DNA of 64,000 bases from Beroe forskalii. Its lineage: Eukaryota > Ctenophora > Nuda > Beroida > Beroidae. Made by a program: the position numbers and the translations under genes. Under the pieces are notes generated by a model that was not told the DNA's origin, did not search any database, and was given only the letters and a program-made list of their open reading frames with translations. Where the stretch lies: positions 124,001-188,000 of the forward strand of contig WFMF01000179.1 in assembly GCA_011033025.1 (NCBI GenBank). The letters run 5' to 3'. Below are positions 20,157 through 63,490 of the stretch, one piece after another (within the stretch, counting starts at the first letter, position 1; each line of letters opens with the position of its first letter).

Positions 20157-20480
20157 CTATTTCCCGCCCTGGCCAGGGCGGTAACCCCCCGCGGTAAAAA
20201 GAAAACTGGCCAGGGGTATAAGTTAGAGATTTGAGTGTCACAGGGTGATAGTATAATAATAAGATTCCCGCCCTGGCCAGGGCGGTAACCCCCCGCGGTA
20301 AAAAGAAAACTGGCCAGGGGTATAAGTTAGAGATTTGAGTGTCACAGGGTGATATTCCCTCCCTGGCCAGGGAGGTAACCCCCCGCGGTAATAAAAAAAC
20401 TGGCCAGGGGTATAAGTTAGAGATTTGAGTGTCACAGGGTGATATAATAATTCCCGCCCTGGCCAGGGCGGTAACCCCCT
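20157..20480. repeat. Four tandem copies of a CTGGCCAG-hairpin repeat
   Basis: Units of about 90-105 bp begin TTCCCGCCCTGGCCAGGGCG and continue through AACTGGCCAGGGGTATAAG and GAGTGTCACAGGGTGATA. A decayed part recurs at 20605-20660, and a separate single copy lies at 49303-49383. The inner palindrome GCCCTGGCCAGGGC is perfect in most copies. Confidence 0.85.
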
Positions 20481-22496
20481 GCATATCAGAAAAATAAAAA
20501 GAAATAGAGAGTCAGGACCTATCTAGAACGATTCGTCGTAAAATTTTAGGTCTAGAACAACCGTTCTTATAGATACGCGTATACTTAAATCGCACGCTAC
20601 AGTAACGTAACTGGCCAGGGCTATATATGAGAGAATTCAGTGTCACAGGAGTTGATACATATAATAATAATAAGATAATTTGTGACCCAATTTAAATCGA
20701 TGAGATCTCAAGTTCTACAAATGGTAGAGACATGATCGAGGTCACGTTTTGTAGATCTAAGATGGGGAATTGCATTAGGCTATAAAATAAGTTCTGGTGA
20801 CGTCATTATGACGTCATTATGACGTCATCAACTTAGCGAAATTTTACTGCTTTTTAGCGAAAATAGGTCGTTTTCGAGCGCATTTTTCACCAAGAAGGAA
20901 TGGAGATAGCTCAAAAATTTTGAAAAATCGTTGGTTGGAAATTTAAAGAGCTTTCAGAAAATCATACTGATCATTGGGTTATCTCGATTTTCATCGAGAT
21001 ATACGCGATTTTCTAAGGTGCGGTGAAAAATCGATGTCGAAATTTTAGGACAAAACTTTAATGAGTGAGATGTCAAGAACTACTACTTATCTTGAGATGA
21101 GATCGGCCAAAGTATGTTGTACTAAGGCGGAATTTCTTATAGGCTATATGGGAAGATGGTTTGAGCCTATTCGGGTGCTGTGATGACGTCATCAAAATCG
21201 CGTAAAACCACTAAAATAGCGTATTTTGCGATAAAATGCTATTTTGCGCCATTTTGAACATCTCTAACTGAGAGAGTTTTCATCGGAATATGTTTTACTT
21301 CGATATTTTGCTTTAGACCTCGAGATTTAGCTATAAAACGAGTTTCAAGGTGATCGGTCGAAATATGTTGTCATGCGAAGCCTCTAAAATTGAGCCGCAA
21401 AATGGTTGAAATTACGTTAATGATGAAAAATTGAACTTTAGCCTTATTCTGTGTTACGATGACGAACTAATAATGGTTTCTTCATGTCTCGCAGTTACTA
21501 AATGTGGGAAATATACGATGAAATAGTGAATCACGTGAGTTCACGTGGACGTTTTGTAGAAATTAGGTGATTTAAATAAATTGATATTTACACGCGATTT
21601 TCGACTTGATAACGTTGAAATGGGTTCAAATACGACTGATGCACGAAGAATTAGATCTGGGTGCTACATTTCAGCACGTGAGTTCACGTGGACGATTTGT
21701 AGAAATTAGAAATTGGTCAATTCTAGTAATTCCAAGTTAGAATAACGTTGTTTCGGAATGCGTGAGGTTTAGTTACGTTAGTTCCAACCGAAAGAAATGG
21801 ACTGACGTCACCAAATCAGCAGGGGGTTACTACGACAACCGTCTCGGTTTTGGAGAGCCTATATAATAATAATATATAATATATAGCATGATAATTGGGA
21901 GCAAATTTGAAACGCTGAGATCTCAAGAACGGGAAATGGTAGAACCATGATCGAGGTCAGGTTTTGTTGATCTAAGATGGGAAAATGTTATAGGCTATAA
22001 GAGAAGTTCTGGTGACGTCATTTTCACGTCACTATGACGTCATCAACTTAGCGAAATTTTATTGCTTTTTTAGCAAAATAGGCCATTTTTGAGCGCATTT
22101 TTCACCAAGAAGGAAAGGCGATAGCTAAAAAATTTTGGAAAATCGTTAGTTGGAAATTTAAAGAGCTTTCAGAAAATCATACGGATCATTAGGCTATCTC
22201 GATTTTTCATCGAGATATACGCGATTTTCTAAGGTACGGTGGAAAAATCGATTTTCAAATTATAGGACAAAACTTAAACGAGTGATATGTCAAGAACTGC
22301 AACTTATCTTGAGATGAGACCAGTCAAAGTATGTTCTACTAAGTTGGAATTGTCTTATAGGCTATATGGGAAGTTGATTTGAGCTTATTTGGGTGCTGTG
22401 ATGACGCCATCAAAATTGCTTAAAACCACTAAAATAACGTATTTTGCGATAAAATGCTATTTTGCGCTACTCAAAGAGTTTACATTGGATTATGTG

Positions 22497-22716
22497 GGTC
22501 GGAATAACGGGGGTCCGAATAACGGGGGTCCGAATAACGGGGGACCGAATAACGGGGGACCAAATAACGGGGGTCCTAATAACGGGGGTCCGAATAACGG
22601 GGGTCCGAATAACGGGGGTCCAAATAACGGGGGTCCGAATAACGGGGGTCCGAACGGGGGTCCGAATAACGGGGTCCGAATAACGGGGTCCGAATAATGG
22701 GGGTCCGAGTAACATG
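22497..22716. repeat. 15-bp satellite array, GGTCCGAATAACGGG unit
   Basis: About 14 units of 15 bp with single-base variants. Because the period is a multiple of three, all frames stay open (NNGGP, ITGVR and similar peptides); these are not genes. Confidence 0.95.
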
Positions 22717-24013
22717 GGTTCAAACTACATACATCTGTCAAGATATCACCACCAAAACCGTTGGACGGTTGGTCTAGTAACCCCCCGCGGGTTTGGATGT
22801 GACAACAGAACCTGAAAAGAGACAAAATGGGCTGATCACATCCAAACCAGCGGGGGGTTACTAGACCAACCGTCCAACGGTTTTGGTGGTATAGATATAA
22901 TAATAATATCATGATAGTTGGGAGCAAATTTAAAACGATGAGATGTCAAGAACGGGAAATGGTAGAGCCATGATCGAGGTCAGGTTTTGTTGATCTAAGA
23001 TGGGAAAATGTTATAGGCTATAAGAGAAGTTCTGGTGACGTCATTTTCACGTCACTATGACGTCATCAACTTAGCGAAATTTTGTTTCTTTTTAGCGAAA
23101 ATAGCTAATTTCGAGCGCATTTTTCAAGAAGGAAAGGAGATAGCGGTCTGATTTTTCGGAACAATTTTAGCAAATTTAAAGAGCTTTCAGAAAATCATAC
23201 GGATTATTGGGCTATCTCGATTTTTCATCGAGATATACGCGATTTTCTAAGGTACGGTGAAAATCGATTTCCAAATTATAGGACAAAAGTTAAATGAGTG
23301 AGTGTCAAGAACTGCAACTTATCTTGAGATGAGACCGGTCAAAGTATGTTGTACTAAGGTGGAATTGTCTTATAGGCTATATGGGAAGTTGGTTTGAGTC
23401 TATTTGGGTGCTATGATGACGTCATCAAAATCGCGTAAAACCACTAAAATAGCGTATTTTGCGATAGAACGCTATTTTGCGCTACTTTGGACATCTCTAA
23501 CTCAAATAGTTTTCATCGGATTATGTTTTACTTTGATATGCTGCTTTTAAGGCCTTAAGATTTAGCTATAAAATGAGTTTCAGGGCGATCGGTCGAAGGT
23601 TGTTGTCGTGGGAGGCTTCTAAAAATTGAACTGCAAATTGATTGAAATTACGTTTATGACGAAAAATTGTACTGTAATCCTATTCTGTGATACGATGGTC
23701 TACTGATAATGGTTTCTCCATGTCTTGCAGTGAATAGGGATGGAAATATACGATGAACTAGTGGAGCACGTGAGTTGACGCGGACGTTTTGTAGAAATTA
23801 GGGGATTTAAAGAAATTGATATTTACACGGGATTTTCGACTTGATTACGTTGAAATGAGTTTAGATACGACTAATGCACGTGAAATTAGATCTAGTTGCC
23901 ATATTTCAGCACGTGAGTACACACGGACGTTTTGTAGAAATTAGGGGATTTGAAGAAATTTATGTTTACACGGGATTTTCGACTTGATTATGTTGAAATG
24001 AGTTTAAATACGA

Positions 24014-24540
24014 CTAACAGCGGTCTGAATAACGGGGGTCTGAATAACGGGGGTCTGAATAACGGGGGTCCGAATAACGGGGGTCCGAATAACGGGGGTC
24101 CGAATAGCGGGGTTTCGAATAACGGGGGACCGAATAACGGGGGTCCGAATAACGGGGGTTCGAATAACGGGGGTCCGAATAACTGGGGTCCGAATAACGG
24201 GGGTTCGACTACCGGGGTTCGACTAACGGGGTTCGACTAACGGGGTCCGAATAACGGGGTTCGACTAACGGGGTCTGAATAACTGGGGTCCGAATAACGG
24301 GGGTTCGACTACCGGGGTCCGAATAACGGGGGTCCGAATAACGGGGGTCTGACTAACGGGGGTTCGACTAACGGGGGTCCGAATAACGGGGGTTCGACTA
24401 ACGGGGGTTCGACTAACGGGGGTTCGACTAACGGGGGTCCGAATAACGGGGGTTCGACTAACGGGGGTCTGAATAACGGGGTCCGAATAACGGGGGTCCG
24501 AATAACGGGGGTCCGAATAACGGGGGTCCGAATAACATGG
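24014..24540. repeat. 15-bp satellite array with GACTAACGGGG variants
   Basis: About 35 units of 14-15 bp, mixing GGTCCGAATAACGGG with GGTTCGACTAACGGG forms and joined to the same foldback palindrome at 24568-24713. The mix of two unit types points to local unequal exchange. Confidence 0.95.
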
Positions 24541-24832
24541 GTTCAAACTACATACATCTGTCGAGATATCACCACCAAAACCGTTGGACGGTTGGTCTAG
24601 TAACCCCCCGCGGGTTTGGATGTGACAACGGAACCTGAAAAGAGACAAATTGGCTGATCACATCCAAACCAGCGGGGGGTTACTAGACCAACCGTCCAAC
24701 GGTTTTGGTGGTGTAGAACTGGGAGATTGCTCATCTTTTAATCCATTTATCAATTGAGAACTCTGCTCATATATAACAACCTGCTTCATGAGTTTAAAAC
24801 CCTTCTAATTTTGGTTTTTATCTAGCCTCATA

Positions 24833-39400: not shown

Positions 39401-42242
39401 CTAAATGTCTTTCTTACTCTCTGGAGGCACCCCCTCCACCTCCTCCTCCTCCCCCTGAGCCTCGTCATTGCCTCGTGATAAACTGCTGCGCGAGGCGCCG
39501 CGCTTCTCCTCCGTCGCGCTCGTCACCTCGCTGCTCGAGACTTCGCCGCGTTCGCGCGCTAACCGGCGCTTCTTTCGCTGCTCCTTGCGTTCCTTCTCGG
39601 CGTAGTAGTCTTGCAATCTGGGATGAGGTGAAGTAATTCTTAGCAACGATGAAATTTAAAAGGGTAATTATATACAAGTTATATGGATTTGAGTGTCGCG
39701 GGGTGAAATTTCACGAGTTTAAATGTTTTCAAACATACACAAGTGACAATATATCGTATACTCACGAATAAAGAGGTTTGAAAGTCTCAATAATCCCGAG
39801 TTTATCATCGTTGATATTGGGTAGTAACCAAAAGTGATAGACACCGCGAGAGGAGCCCCAAACGATCACAAACAGAATCAACCTTACTGAAATTAATTGC
39901 AAGTCAACCCTTTCATGTCCATTGTCCAGTATGTGACATTGTTACAATCATTCAGCTTACCTACTTATTAATATATCTTGACAGGCTTTAACTGTGCCTA
40001 CCATGAATTAAACTTTGAACTTATACTGTGACCTTTGTGAAATTAATATTTCCAAAATTCATTAGTGATCAACGATCATTTAAAAAACTTGTGATAGCTA
40101 GTCGTAAGGCGACCAAAAAGTAGGGTAGCTTTACGAAAAATCTACCAAGTTAGTTACTTGTAAATTGCCAAGAAAAACACTCTGACCTTTAACCAATGTA
40201 AACTTTTCACAAGTTGCTGGTAATAAGCTTTAGCAACAATACACTTCACTGCAGCATACCTATCATTAATGCGAATAGTAGTCCCACCAAAATGCCCGAG
40301 CCATTTGTGATGTACTGGAACGCAATCTGAGCTTCCCCTGGCCACACAGGAACCAAGGCCATGGCTATAACTCCCAGAAGCAAACCTCCCCCTGGAACAG
40401 GGGACGTGCAAAACAGGGGGTAAGACTTACAAAACAGGGGGTAAGACTTACAAAACAGGGGATATGACTCACAAAACCGGGGATATGACTCACAAAACAG
40501 GGGATATGACTGCAGTCTGCAAAAAAGGGGATATGACGTGCAAAACAGGGGATATGACTTACAAAACAGGTTTAATATGAATCACAAAACAGGGGATGTG
40601 ACGTGCAAAACAGGAGATATGACTGTACAGAACAGGGGATATGACTGTACAGAACAGGGGATATGACTGTACAGAACAGGGGATATGACTCACAAAACAG
40701 GTTTAATATGACTCACAAAACAGGGGATATGACGTGCAAAACAGGGGATATGACTTACAAAACAGGGGATATGACTGTACAGAACAGGGGATATGACTCA
40801 CAAAACAGGTTTAATATGACTCACAAAACAGGAGATATGACTGCAAAAAGGGGATATGACTTACAAAACAGGGGATATGACTGCAAAAAGGGGATATGAG
40901 TCACAAAACAGGGGGCTCACAAAACAGGGGGTATGACTTACGAAACAGGGGATATGACTCACAAAACAGGGGATATGACTCCAAAAGTGGGGTATGACTT
41001 ACAGAACAGGGAATACTGAATATGGCAGTACAAAACGAGGGATGTTACTATACAAAACAGGCTACGTGACAATGACTGAACAAACGCAGGGCAGTTTGGC
41101 AGTCAAATTTCTAATTGAAATCGAAATATCACAACGTCAACAAGAATTCGAAAGAAGAGTCAAATTTAATCTTTACCAATTACGTAGGCCCATATACCCA
41201 TGGGGCTGTATTTCCACATGTAGAACTGCTCTGGACTGTCAAGAAATTCATCTGCGTCAAAAATTACATCAAATCTCAGTGGCTTGCCCTTCTTTTTGGT
41301 TTTAGATGTTTCTGTAAAAGAATAATTATAATTTGGAAACCAATCATTAATCGTGACTCCAAAGTTTTTAACAGTGCTGTGCATGAGTTTGATAGCAGGA
41401 ATCATGCCAAGTACATGCTGTTTGAACATCAGCGTATGATTTCAGGTAATGATAAGATCATAAGTTACCAGTATCTCCTTTTTTCTTCTTAGATTTCTGC
41501 TTGAGAGCAATGAAGAACTCGTTGGATAGCAGACCAGTACAGAACTCCACTGCGTCTTCCCTGGTCTCCAGGTGAAGGTCCTCATTGGGGTCATTCCAAC
41601 TGGAGCACATGAGAGTGTCAACCAAGGCAGCACCTGAAATCACAGTCATGGAATTAATAATTCTACATGATGACCTTACATTTTACATTGGCTTTGATAG
41701 AGCCAGTGTTACACAAGTATTTACCCTCTTTGGTAAGATCGCAGTGTCATGTCAAGTCCTGGAGAGGGAAATTAAATGACCACAAACAAGGGACAATGGG
41801 CACAATTATTTTGTTTGATAACTCGGGATTATAATGTAAACACAGTAATGAATCTAAAAAAGATTCACATTTATATTTTCAAACTACAGTAGATTTGATT
41901 ACCTGAGAAGTATTTGATAGAGCTCTCTTTCGTTTTACCTTCAGTGGTTTTGATCTCATTTTGCAGATACTTGCTAACTTCGTTCATTAACCTTTTTATC
42001 TTTTTAACTTTTTCTTTCTGCGATCATAAACAAATTTATAATTGACAGATCAAGAAAGGTTTGAAATAGGTACTTATGTTACTGTGAAAATGAAACATTG
42101 ATTAGGTATTGTTTAACTGGAAATTTAAAATCGATTAAGTCCTCAAAATATTTACAGAACAATCAACCAATTTATTCAAAATAGAGGTCAGACTAACATT
42201 AGCTGCCTCCTGCTCTTTCTCTTCCTTTGTTGCTCCAGCCAT
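39401..42242 (-). CDS. SEC62: SEC62, ER protein translocation component
   Basis: Seven exons: 42242-42198 (MAGATKEEKEQEAAN), 42017-41903, 41633-41469, 41311-41177, 40391-40260, 39886-39766 and 39617-39401 (stop). All phases join to a 309-residue protein. Cytosolic N-domain: KVKKIKRLMNEVSKYLQNE, YFSGAALVDTLM and TREDAVEFCTGLLSNEFF. Then FYMWKYSPMG, two membrane segments (GGLLLGVIAMALVPVWP... and ...RLILFVIVWG), the signature VYHFWLLPNIND with FKPLYS, and a charged Lys/Glu-rich tail. SEC62 assists post-translational translocation at the SEC61 channel and, in animals, ER-phagy. I cannot point to a LIR motif in the tail. The fifth intron boundary region is swollen by a minisatellite. Confidence 0.95.
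40405..41060. repeat. Minisatellite, ACAAAACAGGGGATATGACT unit
   Basis: About 28 units of 20-24 bp with variants (TGCAAAACAGG, TGTACAGAACAGG, AACAGGTTTAATATGA) fill the SEC62 intron between the exons at 40391 and 41177. Higher-order blocks are visible, such as a four-unit set repeated at 40560-40700 and 40690-40830. The open frames across it (DMTYKTG peptides) are repeat translations. Confidence 0.92.
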
Positions 42243-44113: not shown

Positions 44114-45281
44114 GAAAATCCCTATGAAAGATACAGAATCATAAAGCCATGCAAGCAAATTGGAATTCATTATCATATGATAAATCAAACTAGCAATTTG
44201 TTACCTAAGGCCCAAGAGTATAAATGTCCATTGTCCATTAAGCCCCCCCCCCCCCCATAAAGGACGTCTACAAAATTTAAGCCATTCAAGACCCCTCCCC
44301 CCTGTCTGCTAACATCTGCAATCCAAAAAAACACTTCCTCCCCTTGATTTCTGTACTTTTGCAGTTATCTCATAAATAGCTAATAAATAAATATATAAGT
44401 AGCATCTCAGCTTCTTTATAGAAAGAACATTGTCATCCTTGTGAGTCAAGCCACAGAACTCTCTTACAGCTCCAACTGTAGTCTTTGATGGGATCCATGA
44501 AAGAAATACCTTCATGAGAGAGCTAGGTAGATCCAAATAAAGTATTGGATCTACCTATAAATAATACCTGTCACCCATGTTTGAAACATGTCAAAATGTC
44601 ACTTAATAAAACAAGTAATTTTAATAAAACAAGTAATTTATATTTTGTAGCCATTACACCAAAGTCTTAACATATTAATTCTTTTCAATGCTATAGCAAT
44701 TATGATTCAGATTTCATTGTCAATAGGCATAGAACATATTCAATAATTTAAACTAGAACATATAAAAATCAATTGAGAATATTCTAGATAATATAATATT
44801 AAGCTAATTAAAAACAATATCTACCTTTTTATACATTAAAAACGGTATAATATTAAAACGATAGCAATGGCATATGAAATACCTTGACCAATTATCAATA
44901 TTAACATAATAAGCAGCAAAAATAAAACTGTAGAAGATAAGAGCAATTGAGTTGTGCTGCGGCTACAGGAAATACTTGTGGGAACTTGAGTACCACCCTT
45001 GGTACAACACTAAATAAATTCAAGAAAAATTTATCAAGAACGTGTTATAAATTTCAGCTACTTGCTGCTGGTCACGAACATTTTTTTGAATAATTTAGGT
45101 ATTAATTTAAGTTATTCTAACAAATTGTCAGTTAAAGGCCCCACAAGCTCTAGGTCGAAATTTCAAATTATGTCACAAAAGTACCGTATACATGTACTGA
45201 GTCGATCTAGCGTAAAATAACAGTACATAAATAATCCAATTAGCGACAGGGCGTAATCTAATACACTAATACACGCGATTG
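44114..45281. other. Intergenic, AT-rich, with poly-C tract
   Basis: No gene recognised. A poly-C run lies at 44244-44256. The EMC4 upstream region lies here, and the plus-strand transposon begins at 45282. Confidence 0.4.
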
Positions 45282-45755
45282 GAGAGGGCCAGCATGTACC
45301 GGCAAGAATAACAAACGTATCTTACATATCTACTGTGTTTAGCTGTTCGTTTCTCTTGTTTTGTTCCATTTTATACATTCAATACAAGCAACCGTGGATT
45401 AAATATTCGCATATTGCTTTTGCAATGTTTTTGAAGTCAATCTCATCGTCTTAGTCAAGTATAATTATGTCATAATAACGTAATAAATAGGGTCATAAAT
45501 GAGAATCTATAACAGTATCATTCAATATCCCGAATTTTTGAGTTCTAGAGTTCTAGGAAGCTTGATTAGACGTCTGAAGTTACTCACCATAATTTGGTAT
45601 TCAAATTCTAAATTTTCCTATTCGTTGATTTAATACTAATAGACTTAACATGGTTTTGAACTTAAAACTATAATGAATTTAATCGTCATAAACCACACAA
45701 ATTTAGCCAAGTATCAAGTACTCCATTTATTGGTTTGTCTGCGATCACTGCCCAC

Positions 45756-48014
45756 ATGGATGCTGAACCATCCTCTTCTTCGGAGCCTTTGAAGAAGAAG
45801 CAAAAGTCTGGTGGTTCGTTTTGTTCATATGCATCATGCTCAAACAGAAGCCATCGCAATAAGACAAGCAACTTACCAAATCGTGGGTTTCTAAGGTTTT
45901 ACAAACTCCCTAAAGATGCAGATAGAAGGAAACGATGGGTTTCGAGGATGAAGCGCCAATTTGGTTGGCAACCATCAGATTATACAAAAGTTTGCTCAGA
46001 CCATTTTCATGATATTGATTTTGTGGAAACTGATGTCACCAAATATAGAGAAAATCCTGGGCAGGAAAAGGTCATGATACGTCTGAAAAAGGACGCAATC
46101 CCTTGCACTGATCGACAAACTGGAGAGTATCTTGACCCTGCTCAATCAGCTACAGCATCTTCTCGACTGCCACGAAAAAGGAAGGTTCATTTAGCAAATC
46201 CTCCGTGTGATGGAAGTTCTACTAATATCTCTGGCAGTGACATAGTTATTGAGATCCCGTCAGCAACAGTATCTACAGAAGGGGAATCTGAGCTTGAGGC
46301 CGAGGTAGATTGTGACTTCATCAATGAAGTGGATGAAAGCTCTCAGGACTCAGCTTCTGAATATGATCCGTCTGAATCAGATCCAAATGAAGATGTTGAA
46401 ACAGACTGGGAAGAATCCGAGAATGACAACGGGGCTGAGGATGAAGTTGTATGCCACGATATAAATCCATTCTTAGCTATGTTTCATTGGACTTTTGTGG
46501 CGATTCCATTGCTACTGTCGCTGTTTAATTTCTGTCCAAAGTGTGGGTCTACATGTCGTGTATTGAATGTTAAAACCAAGGGATTTGCAATTGCCATTGA
46601 GTACAGATGTCTTGGAATATCACCCCACCATGACGTTTGGCACAACTCACCATTTACAAGGCGGTACTTTGACATTAATCTAAAAATACCAGCCATGGCA
46701 ACCATGTGTGGACTTGGATATAGTCTATTGGAGAATGTGATGAGTGGTTTGAAAATGCCTTATATATCCAGTGCCTGCTTCTTCAAAAACATTCGAGTAA
46801 ATCTCTATCCTGTAATAGCTGCAAAATGGAATGTCATGCGTGATGGTCTCATTCGGGGTCTTGCATCCAAAGGTGAATGTGATGTTTCAGGCGACGGGCA
46901 TTTTGATAGCCCGGGTTGGACGGCTAAATTTTGCTCGTATAGTATCATGGACATCGATTCTGGGGCAATAATTGATTTTTTCGTCTCCCAACGTGCGATG
47001 TATGATGGTGACCTGGAGACTGAATCTTGTAAGGAGGTATTATCTAACATTACACAGAAAGGTTTGAAGATACGCAATTTTGTGACTGATGAAAATTCGA
47101 AAGTTTCAAAAATGGTAAGGGAGAATTTTCGGTCCATTACACACTGTCTAGATGTTTGGCACAAGGCTCGTCTGATTAAAAAGAAGTTGTTGAAGATGGC
47201 TAAGAAACATTCTGAAATCTTGAAATTTGTGCCTAAAATCGTCAATCATTTTTGGTATGCCTGCCAGTCATGTAACAAAGACCCACGAGTCCTTTTAGAA
47301 ACTTTCCATGGATGTCTATTGCATATCTGCAACAAACACGCATGGGTGACAGATCCACTCATTGAACTAAAATCTAAAATCCAAACAGAGAAAGACAAAC
47401 AGAGGAAAACAACGCCTACAGCAGCCGAAAAGCAGAAACGAGGACCAGGCTTGCCTTACTTCACCAAAATCAGAAAGTGTTCTCATTCGTCCAGGATGCG
47501 TCATAGAAGGTACAGAGGAACTTCATGGATGGATGTGGATAGTGCAGCATTCAAAAGCTTGTTTCAATACCTGACGGACACGAGGTTCTGTAATACAATC
47601 CAGAAATGCTGCCAGTTCTTACATACTGGTGGATTGGAGACGTATCACAACGTCAGGCTGAAACTCCTGCCCAAGAGATCGTCTTACAAACTACTCCGTA
47701 TGATTATCTCTGGAATGTTAGTCGCAATTGATGTCAATAGCAACCTTGAGAGCAACACTAACGTGAAACGGAAGCAGTATTGGAAGTGGAGCCGTGCACA
47801 GAAGAAGTATGTTGCCAAGCAGAGAATACTGAAGAAGGACTACAGTTTCAGAGAGGAAATTATGCAGTTCATGATGGATTGTTTGAAAAACAACCAGGAT
47901 TTACCACGAGTGGAGGACACGTTGGGTGGTTATTATATCAAACGTGATGTACCTGTCAGGATTGTTGACGCGGACTTTCCAACAACTGCTCCAACTTCAC
48001 GAACGCGATTTTGA
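45756..48014 (+). CDS. THAP-domain DDE transposase (ISL3EU-like)
   Basis: Intronless, 752 residues from the ATG at 45756. THAP zinc finger: Cys23, Cys28, Cys80 and His83, with FLRFYKLPKD and WVSRM between them and a DAIP box at about 113-116. A long acidic Ser/Asp/Glu linker follows (about 150-235), then a CPKC zinc-ribbon motif (260-263). The catalytic core shows GDGHFDSPGWTAKFCSY (candidate Asp380 or Asp384), FVTDENSKVS (Asp445), CLDVWHKARLIKK, and GGLETYHNVRLKLLPKRSS (Glu628), the D-D-E order of an RNase H-fold transposase. The frame is intact, so the element may be recently active. It could instead be a domesticated THAP protein, but terminal repeats argue for a transposon. Confidence 0.85.
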   Translation: MDAEPSSSSEPLKKKQKSGGSFCSYASCSNRSHRNKTSNLPNRGFLRFYKLPKDADRRKRWVSRMKRQFGWQPSDYTKVCSDHFHDIDFVETDVTKYRENPGQEKVMIRLKKDAIPCTDRQTGEYLDPAQSATASSRLPRKRKVHLANPPCDGSSTNISGSDIVIEIPSATVSTEGESELEAEVDCDFINEVDESSQDSASEYDPSESDPNEDVETDWEESENDNGAEDEVVCHDINPFLAMFHWTFVAIPLLLSLFNFCPKCGSTCRVLNVKTKGFAIAIEYRCLGISPHHDVWHNSPFTRRYFDINLKIPAMATMCGLGYSLLENVMSGLKMPYISSACFFKNIRVNLYPVIAAKWNVMRDGLIRGLASKGECDVSGDGHFDSPGWTAKFCSYSIMDIDSGAIIDFFVSQRAMYDGDLETESCKEVLSNITQKGLKIRNFVTDENSKVSKMVRENFRSITHCLDVWHKARLIKKKLLKMAKKHSEILKFVPKIVNHFWYACQSCNKDPRVLLETFHGCLLHICNKHAWVTDPLIELKSKIQTEKDKQRKTTPTAAEKQKRGPGLPYFTKIRKCSHSSRMRHRRYRGTSWMDVDSAAFKSLFQYLTDTRFCNTIQKCCQFLHTGGLETYHNVRLKLLPKRSSYKLLRMIISGMLVAIDVNSNLESNTNVKRKQYWKWSRAQKKYVAKQRILKKDYSFREEIMQFMMDCLKNNQDLPRVEDTLGGYYIKRDVPVRIVDADFPTTAPTSRTRF

Positions 48015-48354
48015 CTTTCGTAGTTCCTCACAGACTTTTGGGTACAGTTATCGGTATACTATAACTCTGATTATATATGTTTATGTCCGCAATACCAGCT
48101 GTCAATCTGTCATAATTTCAGTTTCAATTTCTATACTATCAACTTATACCAGGTCCATTTCGTCTATCATTATCTATTATAGTATAATTTCCTTGCTAGC
48201 TCACACGACGTATGAATTATCATGATGTTACAATTATTTTCGAATTGTTAGTGCCAAGACTAGTCATAACATTTTTGATGAAGATAAGTTTGATAAGACA
48301 CCTGATAGGAACTTCTTTATCTAACATACTCACCAAAAATAATTTCTTGTCAGT

Positions 48355-48963
48355 ATGTCAGATCAAGGGAGTGATGATGAAAGCTTTCCTGTGAGAGAAG
48401 ACTTTGAGGATGACCCATACACATCTCCAGATGACGCTAGTGAAAATGATGACGACTTAATTGATCTTGATTTTTCGGAATTCTCACAGGCGAGGGATAC
48501 GGAGCATTCAACTTCAAGTGATAACTACACGGATTCACAAACTGTCTCAAAAGCATCATTTTGCGAATGTGACAAATGTTTCGACAGTAAAGTTCAGGAA
48601 GCTGTATGTTGTAGGAAGTGTGATGAACTCTCTGACCTTATATCTGAGCTATACAATTGCGTAACAGAAACGAATATATTTGACGGTTTGGTCTCGCAAG
48701 GACTAGAGTACACCCGTTTCATACACGGTTCATCAATCAAGGATTCTAAGAAAAGGGATGAGTATCTTTCTAAGCCCTTGAATAACGGCCTAAAACGTCA
48801 TTTACTTTATCGTACCTTCGTGATAATGGCCAACAAAGGACATCCATTAGGCAAAAATAATCGAACTGTTATCCCAAGCTGTGTTGTTGGCAAGATCAGA
48901 GTAAAATACCCGCAAGAAGATGGTTCCTATGAGGGTTATCATGATGTACGGGTGATAGAATAA
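48355..48963 (+). CDS. P2X7 ballast-domain-like cysteine-rich protein
   Basis: Intronless frame of 202 residues starting 340 bp after the transposase stop. An acidic, Ser/Asp-rich N-terminus (1-66) is followed by a Cys cluster: Cys70, Cys72, Cys75, Cys85, Cys86, Cys89 and Cys102. The C-terminal block has LKRHLLYRTFVIMA, then NRTVIPSCVVGKIRVKYPQE and DGSYEGYHDV. This order (CxCxxC, CCRK, YR, IPSC, IR.KYP, G.Y.G) is that of the zinc- and GDP-binding intracellular ballast of vertebrate P2X7 receptors, also known from stand-alone genes in animals. There is no membrane segment. Its position inside the terminal repeats makes it an accessory gene of the transposon; its function there is unknown. Confidence 0.8.
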   Translation: MSDQGSDDESFPVREDFEDDPYTSPDDASENDDDLIDLDFSEFSQARDTEHSTSSDNYTDSQTVSKASFCECDKCFDSKVQEAVCCRKCDELSDLISELYNCVTETNIFDGLVSQGLEYTRFIHGSSIKDSKKRDEYLSKPLNNGLKRHLLYRTFVIMANKGHPLGKNNRTVIPSCVVGKIRVKYPQEDGSYEGYHDVRVIE

Positions 48964-49206
48964 CTACATGAGGGATATGTTATGTCATGTATTAATATGT
49001 GTCCTAATTACTATAATGGATGTTTCAGGCATGTTATATTCATAGAAACATATTGGTAATTTGAACTAATTAGTTCCATCACCTGCCCAAACATTCTATA
49101 TTGTACTAATTACATAATAAGTTCACATAAAAATAAACGATTACCATTGTACTATTGTATAACACGTATCACACATTACACTATATCGCAACATGCTGGC
49201 CCTCTC

Positions 49207-51555
49207 GGATACAAGCAACCACGCGCCCTATATCTCGTAATCCAATTAACTCTAGAGGTGGGACAAAGCGCATTCTCTACATCAAGCTAATATCTATGCA
49301 TTCCCTCCTGGCCAGGAGTAACCCCCACGGAATAAAAAACTGGCCAGGGATATAAGTTAGAGACGAGTGTCACAGGGTGATATAACTAAGGGCCCAAAAT
49401 TCAGGTGAATCCATTCTTTAAAATCCCCTCAAAATCCCCCAAAAACGTCAATTTCAAATTTTGGGCTGCCAGGTATAGTATTTTCGGGGGGAGAGCTACT
49501 GGTAGGACCACATGCCAGTTAATAAGGGTGGGTGACCCAGCAGGCTCGACCAGTTAGGGTCTAGACCCTTACTGGTAAAATTTTTCTGCCAAAGGGTCCA
49601 CCCAACCATCTGACCAGTTAGATTTTGTTACCTAAGTGGCTATTTTCAGACCTAATTATTGTAATAAATTTAAATCGAAATTGAAAGAGATTCATTCTAC
49701 CAGAAAACGCATGATACAAGAAATCACTCTGCTAATCTATCATCCTGCTGTCCTTTTTATGAGCCTGCTATCCTATCGCCCTGCTATTCATCCCTCTCTT
49801 AACATTTGATGCCTCTTTTCATCTCTGAAAAAATCATGCAACCTAAAATGGTTCTTCGTCAGGTTGCTCAATGCAATGACAAATGCACTGTTTCACACTT
49901 GAGTCTGCTTTAGCCTGTTAGCTAGCTAGTACCCATTACACATAACAAATGCGGTAACCTTGAATTATTTGCTTGTGCATAAAAATGGAACAGCTTTGCT
50001 GTGTTAGATGAATGTAAGACATCAAGATAAGCTCAAGATAAGGGTATGTAGTGGTACTTTGTAGACTCCGGTGTTGACGTGACATGGCTGTAAGACGCTG
50101 TGTAGATTGTAGACATATCTCAAGAGAGATGCAGTGATCTTGCTCTGATCTACAGCACAGACGTATGTCACACCGAATGCTGACTTGGAATATTCTGTAT
50201 GTGGGAAGATTCGTTCGCCAATATACTGAAGTTATGAGAGTGCAAAGTGCACCCAGTCTCAGATCTTTTGGGGTTCAGATTTTGCATGGAAAAGTTTACC
50301 ATCATAGTACCATTGAGAAACTTCAAACACAGTCAAAGTTTTGAGGCTTCACTTTTGTCAAGCCCTTTTATTGGGAGTATATTCTGGACATTAATAATCA
50401 ATATTCATTGTGTACTTATTGATATGTTATGGACTTGAACTGTATTTTTAACTCTTTTGTCAATTGATAAAAAGGTTTATCGTCAGATATTTTTTGAGAA
50501 TGCAATGCAGCAGTGTTGTCTACGTTTGTCAAATATCTTAAAAATTATACCTCGATTTTTTTGTAGCAAAATCAATTTATTATGGGCTTAGTCTGTTTAT
50601 ATGCGGAATCCTCCCATTTTCAGCTCTTTGGGATTATCTTGAAAACGGACCGAGGTACAGTCTTGAAACTGTTATCCATTCCACCTATCCACCCTGCCAA
50701 CATATACCGACAATTATTTATCTTTTTTAAGAATTTAATTGGAAAACAGAATAACAACCATTTAATCAGAATTTCGTCAGCATGCCAGGTTTCATCAGGT
50801 GACAAACATAAATCATTACCTACTGTCATACAGAAATAAATTGAACAGTTTATATTAATTAAATGAAAATCAGTCTATATATTATGAAATGAACAAAAAT
50901 TGGTATAAAACTGTTTTGAAAACCCATCAAAACTCTGAAGAAAGCTTCCATCACCTGTTATGAACATCACGGTCAAAAAGCGCCGATAAGCAGTGTTTAG
51001 GCGGTTATCGGCGCCTATAGGCACTGATTATCGTTGATTTTCGGCGCCTAAGCAGTGACAGAAATCGGCGCCGATTCGAAGCCTATAGGAAATTATAGGT
51101 GCTGAATCGGCGCCGAAGCGGTGGTTTGCATCAATGGGATTAGCCCACTTAGCAGTGGGGTCATTATCACAAAATCATCATAATATACCAATGTCATTGA
51201 CATGCCGAATTGTATGTGAGGTCTGTATAAAAATGCTTTTGTTACAAAAATACAAATTTCATTTGAAAATGAAAATTCCAGAAAATTTCTCATCAGCCTG
51301 CTGCAGTCTTAGAAGCTTATTACTTTATTAAGACTCCATGCGACTTGCAAACAGGGTGTTTTTGGCTAGTGGTTCATAAAGCACAAGTGACATTGTTATT
51401 GAGTATTATATCTTATCGTGAACAAACAGAGAATGTAAAATAAAAAACTTAAAACTCCTAGGGTGCACCAAAAATTTTGAATATTAAGCGCTCAACACTG
51501 GGCTGATACTGATATGTCTCAGTAAGACATGAGTTTAAATCTAAAACCTCCTCAG
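49207..51555. other. Intergenic repeats before the Ig gene
   Basis: 49303-49383 is a single copy of the CTGGCCAG-hairpin repeat found in tandem at 20157. 49739-49800 has a few CTGCTATCCTATC units related to the array at 61412. 50985-51120 is rich in ATCGGCGCC palindromes (about eight GGCGCC cores). Elsewhere I see no gene. An upstream exon and signal peptide of the Ig gene might lie here but were not recognised. Confidence 0.5.
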
Positions 51556-60500: not shown

Positions 60501-62954
60501 CGAGTGACGGGGCAATTATACCATCAACACTACTGCCACCTCGACACAACTGTCGTCCACTCTGACGATCCACCTGCCGATATTGTCGGCAATGTCGTCC
60601 CCATCGGAGTATTCATGCGTGGTGGACGCAAACTCTACTGTCTCCAGCAATTCACCTACGAGCTACAACAACGTTACTCTCACTCCCATGACGTTAGGTA
60701 ACCAAAAAATCAGCTATTTTGCTGCTATAATAAGTGAATTATCAAACATAACATGAAAATTTTTGTTTGTATTAATTTTTTATTCACGGAATGGGTTCTG
60801 GAAAATGTCGTAAAACTGACTTTCAACTCTATTCTTCCATTTTTATTTCGAAATTTCAAATACAGATATGTATCCAAACTGGATCTAAAGTTAAACGATT
60901 GATCTTAACAGAAATCGAAATAAAAATATTACTATTAGTTACAGTCCAATTACTGTCTGACCGCGAAGAGGTTTGAGACAAAACTAGAAAATATAGTTTT
61001 ATCAACTACAGCATATCAACTCGAAAAGTATCAAAAATTATGGTTTAATTAAAGTTTAAACTGGCCCCCTCATAATCTAATCCCAATGTGATTTCTCATG
61101 AGATCTCTTGCAGACATCATCACAACTGGGTCTGAAGTAATGGAAGGCATGGACGCAACGCTCACCTGTCAGATCAGCGGAATAAGCCAGACTCTGAACG
61201 CAGTGACCTGGAAGGACTCGACTGGTAGTGCAGTATCGGGCGCAGAATATCTGCCCAGCCCCGGAACTTACTCCGCCAACAACCAAACCACCACCCTTGA
61301 AATTAACGGTAGTGCTAACACTGCCGATGCTAACTTCTCCTGCGTGTTTGATTCTTTGGAGTGGGCTATCACTGGAAACAGCACTACTGTGTACTCGGAT
61401 GTCTTTGGTAAGTACTGCTATCCTACCACCCTGCTATCCTATCACCCTGCTATGCTATCATCTGGCTATCCTATCAATCTGCTATCCTATCACCTTCTGT
61501 CGGGTGGGCGACATCTCATCTCACGACATTTCATCTCAGGACACTTCATCTCCATGTCCTGACCCTAACCATAACCCAAACCCTAACCCTGGTCCCTGAC
61601 CCTAACCCTAACCCAAACCCTAACCTTGACCCTTACCCACACCCTTACCTTTGCATAGAGCTGACTGCTGACATATTGCGAGATAAAGTGTCCTGAGATG
61701 AAGTGTCCTGAGATGAAATGTCTGTTCCCCCTTCTATCCTATCATCTTGCTATCCTATCACCCTGCCATCCTATCACACTGCTATCCTATTACTCTGCTA
61801 TGCTATCACCATGCTATTCTATCACCCTTCTGTCCTATTACTCTGCTATCCTATCATCTTGCTTTCCTTTCACCTGCTATCCTATCACTCTGCTATCCTA
61901 TCACCCTGCTATCCTATCACCTGCTATCCTATCACTCTGCTATCCTATCACCCTGCTATCCTATCACCCTGCTATCCTATCACCCTGCTATCCTATCACA
62001 CTGCTATCCAATTAAACCGTTGTGCTAGCACCTCGCTAAGAGGGGTGATGGTTTTTGGGCTGTTATCCAACTTCTTGTGCTGCCATGAATTTAATTGGTA
62101 ATAGGAATATGATTGATCATTGAACACTATCTGTCTCTCACCATGTAACTATCTCTCCCCACCAGCTATAAACGTCGCTGATAAGAACATAGTAACGGGG
62201 ACTGATCAAGACATAGATTGTCCTATCACCGGTTTGGCCGGTACAAACGCCACCGTTACCTGGCAAGATCCCGATGGTAGTGCCATCTCTAACGGTGCCA
62301 ACTACTCGATGGACCCGGGGTCGATTAGTGGTGGAAGCCAAACAGCCACCCTCACCATCAAGGAACCAGTTCTCTTGGAGATGACGAGCCCCAAGACCTA
62401 CACCTGTACTGTCAAGTCCACCCATTACACCAGCAGTTCGAGTTCTGCCTCAGCTAATATAACGCTGACTCCCCTAGTTTTAGGTAGGTGTTTTGTTTAG
62501 ATTCCGTGGCAATTTTTTGTTTCAATTCATCTTATTGCTTTGAAAAGGTTGGTATGTATCATTCTTTGACGTCTATCGAGATAACAACTCGAAATATAAT
62601 AGATGGTATTATCATTTGAAAACACAGTAAGATACATCCCTTTTCAAGGTGTGACCGCTGTTGAGAAGGAGGTTGAGAACAACACGCTAGCCACCATCTC
62701 CTGTGTGATTACCGGCATCAGCCAGCAGCTGGACAAGGTGACCTGGAAGTTGGGTGGAAGTGACGTGCTGGGCATCTCCAACACCTACTACACCGTGGAT
62801 AACGGCACTTACAACGCCACCGACAACTCCCAGACGACAGTGCTGACAGTGGCGGCAGCCGACAACCTGGCCGACACCACTTACCAGTGTGTGTTCTCCG
62901 CCAACGAGTGGAAGGAGTACGATAGGATCACTCAATGCGTCCTCCAAGTCTTCT
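51556..62954 (+). CDS. Ig-superfamily protein, nine Ig domains, open at both ends
   Basis: Exons: 51556-51690, 53499-53660, 53818-53946, 54283-54462, 54715-54821, 55006-55183, 55413-55525, 59455-59638, 59900-60160, 60378-60697, 61114-61407, 62166-62483 and 62649-62954. All domain-boundary introns are phase 1. Domains show the Cys-B / Trp / Cys-F pattern (for example VTLTCSVTE, VYWKQ, VYHCAATED; ATLTCQISGISQTL, AVTWKDS, NFSCVFD). Domains 1-4 are split over two exons, 5-9 are each one exon. Many N-x-S/T sites suggest an extracellular, glycosylated protein. No signal peptide, membrane segment or cytoplasmic tail is in the window. The exon at 60378 has a one-base frameshift, and the exon at 59455 needs a GC donor. 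A cell-surface recognition or adhesion role is plausible but unproven. Confidence 0.85.
52371..52509 (+). mobile_element. Minimal Helitron-like element (139 bp)
   Basis: It starts TCTTATATAAAATCGCAGAT and ends in a hairpin region (GCAGGCTCAAAGCCCAACTG) plus CTAG. Both ends match the larger copy next to it, and almost all of the interior is deleted. It lies in the first intron of the Ig gene. Confidence 0.65.
52510..53301 (+). mobile_element. Helitron-like element (792 bp), complete ends
   Basis: It starts TCTTTAATATAAAATGAATT directly after the CTAG of the previous copy and ends in a perfect hairpin (GCAGGCCCAATGGGCCTGC) with CTAG followed by T. There is no terminal inverted repeat and no coding capacity, as expected for a non-autonomous Helitron. 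It shares interior blocks with the copies at 16367 and 18675 in opposite orientation. Confidence 0.7.
56040..58055. repeat. Tandem duplication of a 0.95-kb foldback unit with giant hairpins
   Basis: Unit 1 is about 56040-57100 and unit 2 about 57125-58055, near-identical. Each begins with a hairpin of about 103-bp arms and a 66-bp loop (56194-56465 and 57129-57399; arms start CCCAAAACCAAAAAGGATTT). Each continues through AATTACGTCAT, GTGACGTCATTATGACGTCA and TAAATAGGGTATACTTCT. No transposase is visible. It lies in the Ig gene intron 55526-59454. Confidence 0.85.
58056..59085. repeat. Two tandem copies of a repeat ending in GC-rich palindrome clusters
   Basis: Units start TATATGGTCGTAACCC at about 58056 and 58570 and end in clusters (58325-58545 and 58855-59080) of CAATGCTCGCCCTCGGACCC with inverse TTCGGGTCC hairpins and a terminal CCGCCGCGGGGG. 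The frames there (NARPRTLR and LALGPFGP peptides) are repeat translations. Confidence 0.85.
61412..62020. repeat. Telomere-like tract and CTATCCTATCACCCTG minisatellite
   Basis: 16-bp units CTATCCTATCACCCTG occur at 61425-61495 and 61735-62010. Between them, at 61558-61650, is a run of CCCTAA/CCCAAA/CCTTGA variants like the complement of TTAGGG. All lie in the Ig gene intron 61408-62165. Confidence 0.9.
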
Positions 62955-63490
62955 GTAAGTACCCAATGCGTCCTCCAAGTCTTCTGTAAGTACTCAATGC
63001 GTCCTCAAAGTCTTCTGTAAGTACTCAATACGTCCTCCAATTCTTCTGTAAGTACTTAATGCGTCCTCAAAGTCTTCTGTTAGTACTCGATGCGTCCTCC
63101 AAGTCTTCTGTTAGTATTCAATGCGTCCTCAAAGTCTTCTGTAAGTACCCAATACGTCCTCCAAGTCTTCTGTAAGAACTCAATGCGTACGCCAAGTCTT
63201 CTGTAGGTACTCAATGCGTCCTCCAAGTCTTCTGTAAGAACTCAATGCGTACGCCAAGTCTTCTGTAGGTACTCAATGCGTCCTCCAAGTCTTCTGTAAG
63301 TACTCGATGCGTCCTCAAAGTCTTCTGTAAGTACCCAATGCGTCCTCCAAGTCTTCTGTAAGTAATCAATGCGTCCTCCAAGTCCTCTGTAAGTACCCAA
63401 TGCGTCCTCCAAGTCTTCTGTAAGTACTCAATTCTTCTGTATAGTAAGTATCCAAGTCTTGCATAAGTCTTCTGTAAATACTCAAGCCGT
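62930..63490. repeat. Minisatellite derived from an exon-intron junction
   Basis: About 18 units of 30-31 bp, consensus ACTCAATGCGTCCTCCAAGTC plus TTCTGTAAGT. The first unit is the 3' end of the Ig exon (62649-62954) with its GTAAGT donor, so every later unit carries a copy of the splice donor. Confidence 0.92.

What the first reader, a model, noticed from the sequence alone, without database searches (positions are those of the whole stretch)
45282..49206. Two-gene transposon pairing a THAP-DDE transposase with a P2X7-ballast-like protein
Perfect 16-bp inverted repeats (GAGAGGGCCAGCATGT) lie outside both genes, which are intact, intronless and on the same strand. The second gene has the cysteine pattern of the P2X7 cytoplasmic ballast. 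The ballast is known as stand-alone genes captured by an ancestral P2X gene. A mobile DNA element carrying such a gene would offer a route for its spread and its capture by the receptor gene. What an accessory ballast protein does in transposition is open: a zinc- or nucleotide-binding targeting factor is one guess.
Basis: partly seen in the sequence, partly recalled or inferred. Interest (0 to 1): 0.9.

Follow-up and report, generated by a model that had tools for sequence, protein, structure and literature searches.

The report
Two-gene Kolobok jumping gene
This is a copy of a known kind of animal jumping gene (Kolobok) that carries, beside its transposase, the small zinc-type protein from which the tail of the P2X7 receptor is thought to have come; that link was already in print, and this genome adds that the two genes descend together while one related element does without the second.

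Summary
In detail: two intact, intronless, same-strand ORFs (THAP-DDE transposase; P2X7-ballast protein) lie between perfect 16-bp inverted repeats. But the 16-mers are subterminal. 38 of the 39 exact genomic 16-mers belong to one family whose true ends are TTAA|AGG(C/G)CCCACAAGCTCTAG. The window copy starts at TTAA 45132 and has lost its right terminus to a nested insertion. TTAA duplication, AG..CT ends, D/D/E with DxxH, and a ballast-type second gene make it a Kolobok transposon of the two-gene 'Kol0' kind. Kojima & Bao 2022 (PMC9587614) already reported that the Kol0 accessory protein KolX has the P2X7 ballast fold and proposed it as the source of P2X7's tail.

Added here: 23 of 26 long transposase places have KolX within 6 kb, always tandem or divergent; the two genes co-descend; KolX dN/dS is 0.07-0.13 in the four usable pairs of 12; three TTAA-bounded sister elements enclose both genes, and one (C370) has an intact transposase but no KolX. 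In short copies KolX is close to neutral. A single-copy 724-codon frame ending in a ballast (C697) may be a separate host use. How KolX works is inferred.

The parts
45132..45135 (.). TTAA target site at the left end of the element
   Evidence: family alignment of left ends, 16 of 18 with TTAA; genome search
45136..45153 (+). left terminus AGGCCCCACAAGCTCTAG, inverted partner of the family's right terminus AGGGCCCACAAGCTCTAG
45282..45297 (+). subterminal 16-bp inverted repeat, left copy; candidate transposase binding site (inferred)
45756..48014 (+). transposase: THAP zinc finger, DDE core (D380, D445, E628 counted from ATG 45756), DxxH (D466-H469), 752 aa
48355..48963 (+). KolX: acidic N-terminus and P2X7-type ballast domain (aa 68-196), 202 aa
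49191..49206 (-). subterminal 16-bp inverted repeat, right copy
49207..49302 (+). remaining right end of the element, up to the break; about 33 bp of terminus and the TTAA are missing
49303..49723 (.). start of a foreign repeat inserted in the right end; the same junction is present in the copy on C159, where the right terminus lies beyond the insert

Best explanation
A cut-and-paste DNA transposon of the Kolobok superfamily, of the Kol0 type, that encodes two proteins. The THAP-DDE transposase binds the ends (inferred: THAP domain on the subterminal 16-mers), cuts, and inserts at TTAA. KolX, a small protein with an acidic N-terminus and a zinc-cysteine ballast domain, is a dedicated accessory factor of the same element, most likely a partner of the transposase complex. 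Shown by sequence: TTAA at the ends, family termini, two open genes, repeated pairing in sister elements, co-descent, and low dN/dS of KolX between elements in the pairs that could be used. Inferred: that KolX acts in transposition, and how. The window copy still encodes both proteins but no right terminus was found, so it is probably a source of protein for shorter copies rather than itself a mover.
For: Family of ends with TTAA. Pfam domains (seven further proteins). Conserved catalytic and DxxH residues in 22 rows. KolX within 6 kb of 29 of 48 transposase places, and of 23 of the 26 that span at least 1,200 nt, against about 0.005 expected per place. Distance matrices of 21 pairs agree (Mantel r 0.89, 0 of 20,000 permutations as high); thinned to 14 pairs r 0.75, 0 of 20,000; tandem-only 7 pairs r 0.86, 24 of 20,000; divergent-only 7 pairs r 0.77, 74 of 20,000. 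8 of 9 well-supported KolX branches recur in the transposase tree and the ninth is unresolved there; tandem against divergent is one split of the transposase tree, 99/96 (branches compared by eye). KolX dN/dS 0.07-0.13 in the four usable pairs of 12. TTAA-bounded sister elements with both genes: C694, C254, C1042 (for C694 the best of 500 shuffles scored 8 against 15 observed).
Against: C370, the closest sister transposase (52% identical), is a TTAA-bounded 4,010-bp element with an open 750-aa transposase and no KolX, so KolX is not always encoded in cis. Two further long transposase places (C914:258571 and C271) have no KolX hit within 6 kb. Of 12 pairs tested for dN/dS, six were saturated for KolX, two young pairs gave 0.75 on 10 and 6 changes, and three of the four usable pairs come from one clade. 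The window KolX sits on a long branch (1.38). The window copy is the only one of its family found with a complete transposase. Neither structure prediction finished. No expression or activity data.
Confidence: 0.8

Rival explanations
1. KolX is not part of the transposition machinery: it is an accessory that helps the element persist in the host, for example by blocking silencing or repair responses, or a self-regulator that limits copy number.
For: C370 has an open transposase and TTAA ends without KolX. KolX tolerates head-to-tail and head-to-head placement. Co-descent and purifying selection would look the same under this reading.
Against: Nothing here points to a host target. The pairing in 23 of 26 long transposase places suggests a role close to the basic cycle but does not prove it.
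Confidence: 0.2
2. KolX is a TTAA-related factor (target choice or clean repair of the TTAA on excision).
For: Kolobok and piggyBac both use TTAA, and PMC9587614 (passages) reports KolX-like proteins in a few piggyBac families.
Against: 0 of 15 piggyBac places in this genome lie near a KolX place (contigs compared by eye).
Confidence: 0.1
3. The two ORFs are a host gene pair that happens to lie between chance repeats.
For: None beyond the loss of a right terminus in the window copy.
Against: A family of ends with TTAA, reversed-pattern control 0; TTAA-bounded sister elements.
Confidence: 0.01

Closest known systems
Kolobok superfamily, Kol0 (Kolobok0) lineage, represented by Kolobok-1_XT: transposase + KolX
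   Same: TTAA duplication, 5'-RR/YY-3' ends, DDD/E with DxxH, second gene with P2X7-ballast similarity (PMC9587614, sections 3 and 10 and passages of sections 12 and 16)
   Different: A family not compared with named Repbase families here; right end interrupted by a nested repeat; relatives in this genome include a head-to-head arrangement and a KolX-less element, which I did not see described in the parts of the paper I read
P2X7 C-terminal ballast, Nanor and other stand-alone ZCD genes (PMC7016195, section 11 and passages)
   Same: Zinc-type cysteine pattern, PF20478
   Different: No P2X channel part; carried by a transposon; of the five GDP-contact residues named in that paper two are invariant here, one is frequent and two are absent
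P element transposase / THAP9
   Same: THAP domain and DDE catalytic core
   Different: P elements make 8-bp duplications and carry a GTP-binding domain inside the transposase (PMC7776569, passages)
piggyBac families with a KolX-like protein (reported in PMC9587614)
   Same: TTAA target
   Different: Another transposase; not seen beside KolX in this genome (0 of 15 places)

Membership tests
Kolobok superfamily | TTAA target site duplication | tested here: met
   TTAA at 16 of 18 left ends (not L040, L045) and 18 of 20 right ends (not L041, window). The right end of the L041 copy does have TTAA, beyond its nested insert. For the window copy only the left TTAA exists
Kolobok superfamily | termini 5'-RR ... 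YY-3' | tested here: met
   AG ... CT at the family ends and in C694, C254, C1042, C370, where the search itself required RR/YY
[quoted passage not shown]
   D380 and D445 in 22 of 22, E628 in 21 of 21, D466 and H469 in 21 of 22 rows; the triad is assigned by motif and conservation, not by structure
Kolobok superfamily | zinc finger between C/DxxH and the last E (almost all Kolobok) | tested here: inconclusive
   Conserved H498, H518, H523, H528, C575, H577, C618 lie there; not matched to the published finger
Kol0 lineage | accessory KolX with the ballast fold | tested here: met
   PF20478 1.1e-14; the seven cysteine columns hold C in every row with a letter there, 18 or 19 of 19. By sequence only; the fold was not modelled
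Kol0 lineage | place among named Kolobok families in a transposase tree | not testable with these tools
   No Repbase or animal sequence collection on hand
   Their features are recalled, not read; the TTAA ends and KolX fit Kolobok. Pfam DDE_Tnp_ISL3 scores below its cut-off (15.8 against 23 bits)
P2X7 receptor | P2X channel domain fused to the ballast | tested here: not met
   P2RX7_C is the only Pfam family in the 202-aa protein at E up to 1

The most novel reading that the evidence does not exclude
KolX supplies a guanine-nucleotide-sensing, zinc-stapled module in trans to a THAP-DDE transposase: the two-protein counterpart of the GTP-binding domain that P element transposase carries inside itself. 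The nucleotide site of the P2X7 ballast, whose purpose in the channel is unclear, would then be a relic of transpososome control. A second thread: the single-copy 724-codon frame at C697 would be a ballast taken up by a host gene independently of P2X7.
Probability: 0.1. Interest if true: 0.75.

Novelty: new member of a known kind. Interest (0 to 1): 0.33.

Why it matters
The P2X7 ballast is a drug-relevant receptor part of obscure function. That it comes from a transposon protein is already proposed in print. What this genome adds is a reason to think that the protein does a job for the transposon: it travels with its transposase through deep divergences, in two fixed arrangements, and changes slowly at the protein level. 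It also adds a natural counterexample without KolX. That makes the question 'what does a ballast do?' testable in a simple transposition assay.

Tried and rejected
A search for the P2X receptor family in the genome gave 0 matches, but the control genomes rang nowhere either and the gene has many exons, so it says nothing. The tree with two P2X7 ballasts leaves P2X7 and C697 unresolved (forks under 80). The copy-by-copy dN/dS values of the short copies are spoilt by frameshifts and were replaced by the base-by-base count. Inverted repeats of C370 by the repeat finder and a first search for ends in four sister pieces found nothing because the fetched pieces were too short, with more flank, found them. 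PDB search with the N-terminal part of C697 gave only weak hits, best E 0.93.

Limits of the pairing count: the transposase search scored 59 of 149 candidates; the KolX places are those with overlapping fragments left out, plus 42 of the 76 rows; three of the 29 linked places (C178, C458, C680) are short copies of the window family and not independent.

Full report
WHAT IS THERE. The two 16-bp repeats and both reading frames are as described. The upstream gene is a THAP-DDE transposase (THAP 7.7e-14, Mutator-like PF20700 7.4e-11) and the downstream gene matches only P2RX7_C, PF20478, at 1.1e-14. Against solved structures the only meaningful matches of the second protein are P2X7 chains, weak by sequence (best E 0.023).

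THE ENDS. The 16-mer occurs 39 times in the 216-Mb genome, reversed control 0. 38 of the 39 are in one family context; the exception is L058. Aligning outward shows that similarity continues about 146 bp beyond the left 16-mer and stops at TTAA: 16 of 18 left ends read TTAA|AGGCCCC, 18 of 20 right ends read (in reverse complement) TTAA|AGGGCCC. Exact searches for the two termini give 19 places each. The 16-mers are thus subterminal. The window copy starts at TTAA 45132. On the right, family sequence ends at about 49302 and a foreign repeat follows. The copy on C159 has the same junction, and there the right terminus with TTAA lies beyond about 4.6 kb of inserted DNA. In the window only about 420 bp of the insert are shared and no right terminus was found. 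The left flanks of the two copies differ. The simplest reading is that an insert-bearing copy moved once and that the window copy later lost its right part; that history is inferred.

COPIES. The window copy is the only one of its family for which the search shows a complete transposase; the next (C469) covers residues 1-274 in two pieces. Most others are 1.1-1.6 kb deletion copies. Of 20 mapped copies (19 loci, L053 holding two), 12 share one junction, window 45845|48529 within a few bases, which joins the start of the transposase gene to KolX codon 58; two share 45881|48286 and keep the whole KolX gene; L039 and L049 share a third; L048, L041, L042 and L051 differ or show one piece. In 15 rows the KolX part shows 58 missense, 30 synonymous and 2 stop changes against 64.1, 22.0 and 4.0 expected without selection: close to neutral, with a slight synonymous excess (by hand chi-square about 4.5, 2 degrees of freedom). 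There KolX is a passenger.

SISTER ELEMENTS. Searching the genome with both proteins gave 48 transposase places and 93 KolX places after merging. 29 of 48 transposase places have KolX within 6 kb, and 23 of the 26 that span at least 1,200 nt; about 0.005 would be expected per place. 13 are tandem (transposase, then KolX), 16 divergent, none otherwise. Adding flanks to four sisters showed TTAA-bounded elements: C694 (4,671 bp) and C254 (4,072 bp), both genes open and a perfect 15-bp inverted repeat; C1042 (4,409 bp, 15 bp perfect) with stops in the transposase; and C370 (4,010 bp, 17 of 20 bp) with an open 750-aa transposase and no KolX, even when all 21 KolX rows are used as queries (best E 0.045). 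For C694 the best of 500 shuffles of the flanks scored 8 against 15.

CO-DESCENT AND SELECTION. For 21 pairs the protein distances agree (Mantel r 0.89, 0 of 20,000 permutations), also after thinning near-copies (14 pairs, r 0.75, 0 of 20,000) and within each arrangement (7 tandem, 24 of 20,000; 7 divergent, 74 of 20,000). In the trees 8 of 9 well-supported KolX branches recur among the transposases and the ninth is unresolved there; I compared them by eye. Arrangement is a single split of the transposase tree with 99/96 support and of the KolX tree with 66/77. Of 12 pairs tested, KolX dN/dS is usable in four: 0.126 for C558/C403 and 0.069-0.076 for three pairs within C691, C914 and C592. Six pairs are saturated, and the two young pairs give about 0.75 on 10 and 6 changes. 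Transposase values are 0.085-0.123 in six pairs, 0.36 and 0.75 in the two young ones, and saturated in four.

THE BALLAST. The cysteines line up with the seven described for P2X7; each of the seven columns has C in every row that has a letter there (18 or 19 of 19). Of the five GDP-contact residues named for rat P2X7 in PMC7016195 (passages), R546 and R578 are R in 19 of 19, H547 is H in 12 of 19, R574 and K583 are 0 of 19; Y550 is Y in 19 of 19 (positions matched by me on the alignments). This agrees with what that paper reports for invertebrates (section 11). So a nucleotide site is possible, not shown.

WHAT IS KNOWN. PMC9587614 (Kojima and Bao 2022; abstract and outline, sections 3 and 10, and passages of others) states that Kol0 Kolobok elements encode a transposase and KolX, that KolX resembles residues 476-595 of P2X7 with the seven cysteines, and that P2X7 arose by fusion of a P2X4-like gene with KolX. 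'KolX' as a whole word occurs in that one paper of the library; Kolobok together with P2X7 in it and one review seen only in a listing. I did not see co-descent, selection on KolX or a KolX-less sister discussed in the parts I read; the supplements were not available.

HOW IT PROBABLY WORKS. The transposase is the catalyst and TTAA the target (TTAA shown by sequence; catalysis from family knowledge). The subterminal 16-mers are probably bound by the THAP domain (inferred). KolX is probably a partner of the transposase (inferred from pairing, co-descent and slow protein change). P element transposase, another THAP-DDE enzyme, needs GTP to pair its ends and position them (PMC7776569, passages), and the P2X7 ballast binds a guanine nucleotide (PMC7016195, passages). 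That makes a nucleotide-binding role in trans the boldest reading left open. C370 shows that at least one lineage lacks KolX in cis.

VERDICT. A real two-gene transposon, a new member of a known kind, with the proposed P2X7 link already in print. Interest 0.33.

Noticed in passing
L065/L060, contig C697 about 22420-24594 (+): A 724-codon open frame ends in a well-kept ballast (PF20478 1e-17 for the 629-aa part given). Its N-terminal part is single copy in the genome (1 match, itself), no transposase place lies within 6 kb, and it lies between two WD40-type exons, apparently inside an intron of another gene. Candidate host use of a ballast independent of P2X7.
   Followed up: partly
L074/L085, contig C370 669277-673286: TTAA-bounded Kolobok-like element with an open 750-aa transposase and no KolX.
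   Followed up: yes
window 49303-49723 and C159 (L041/L059): The same foreign repeat sits at the same junction in the right end of two copies at different sites; parts of the C159 insert resemble repeats elsewhere in the window (about 5.9-6.9 kb and 20.2-24.7 kb).
   Followed up: partly
L053 (contig C514): Two short copies of the family lie head to tail, only a few bases apart (TTAA-bounded ends at 475219-475243 and 475240-475265).
   Followed up: no
window 20264-24653, 40403-41015, 61729-62009, 62930-63432: Several tandem-repeat arrays with periods of 15 to 108 bases.
   Followed up: no
contigs C281, C643, C331, C987, C426: Matches to only the C-terminal half of the ballast (about residues 131-195, 41% identical in four of them), without a transposase place nearby; nature unknown.
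   Followed up: no
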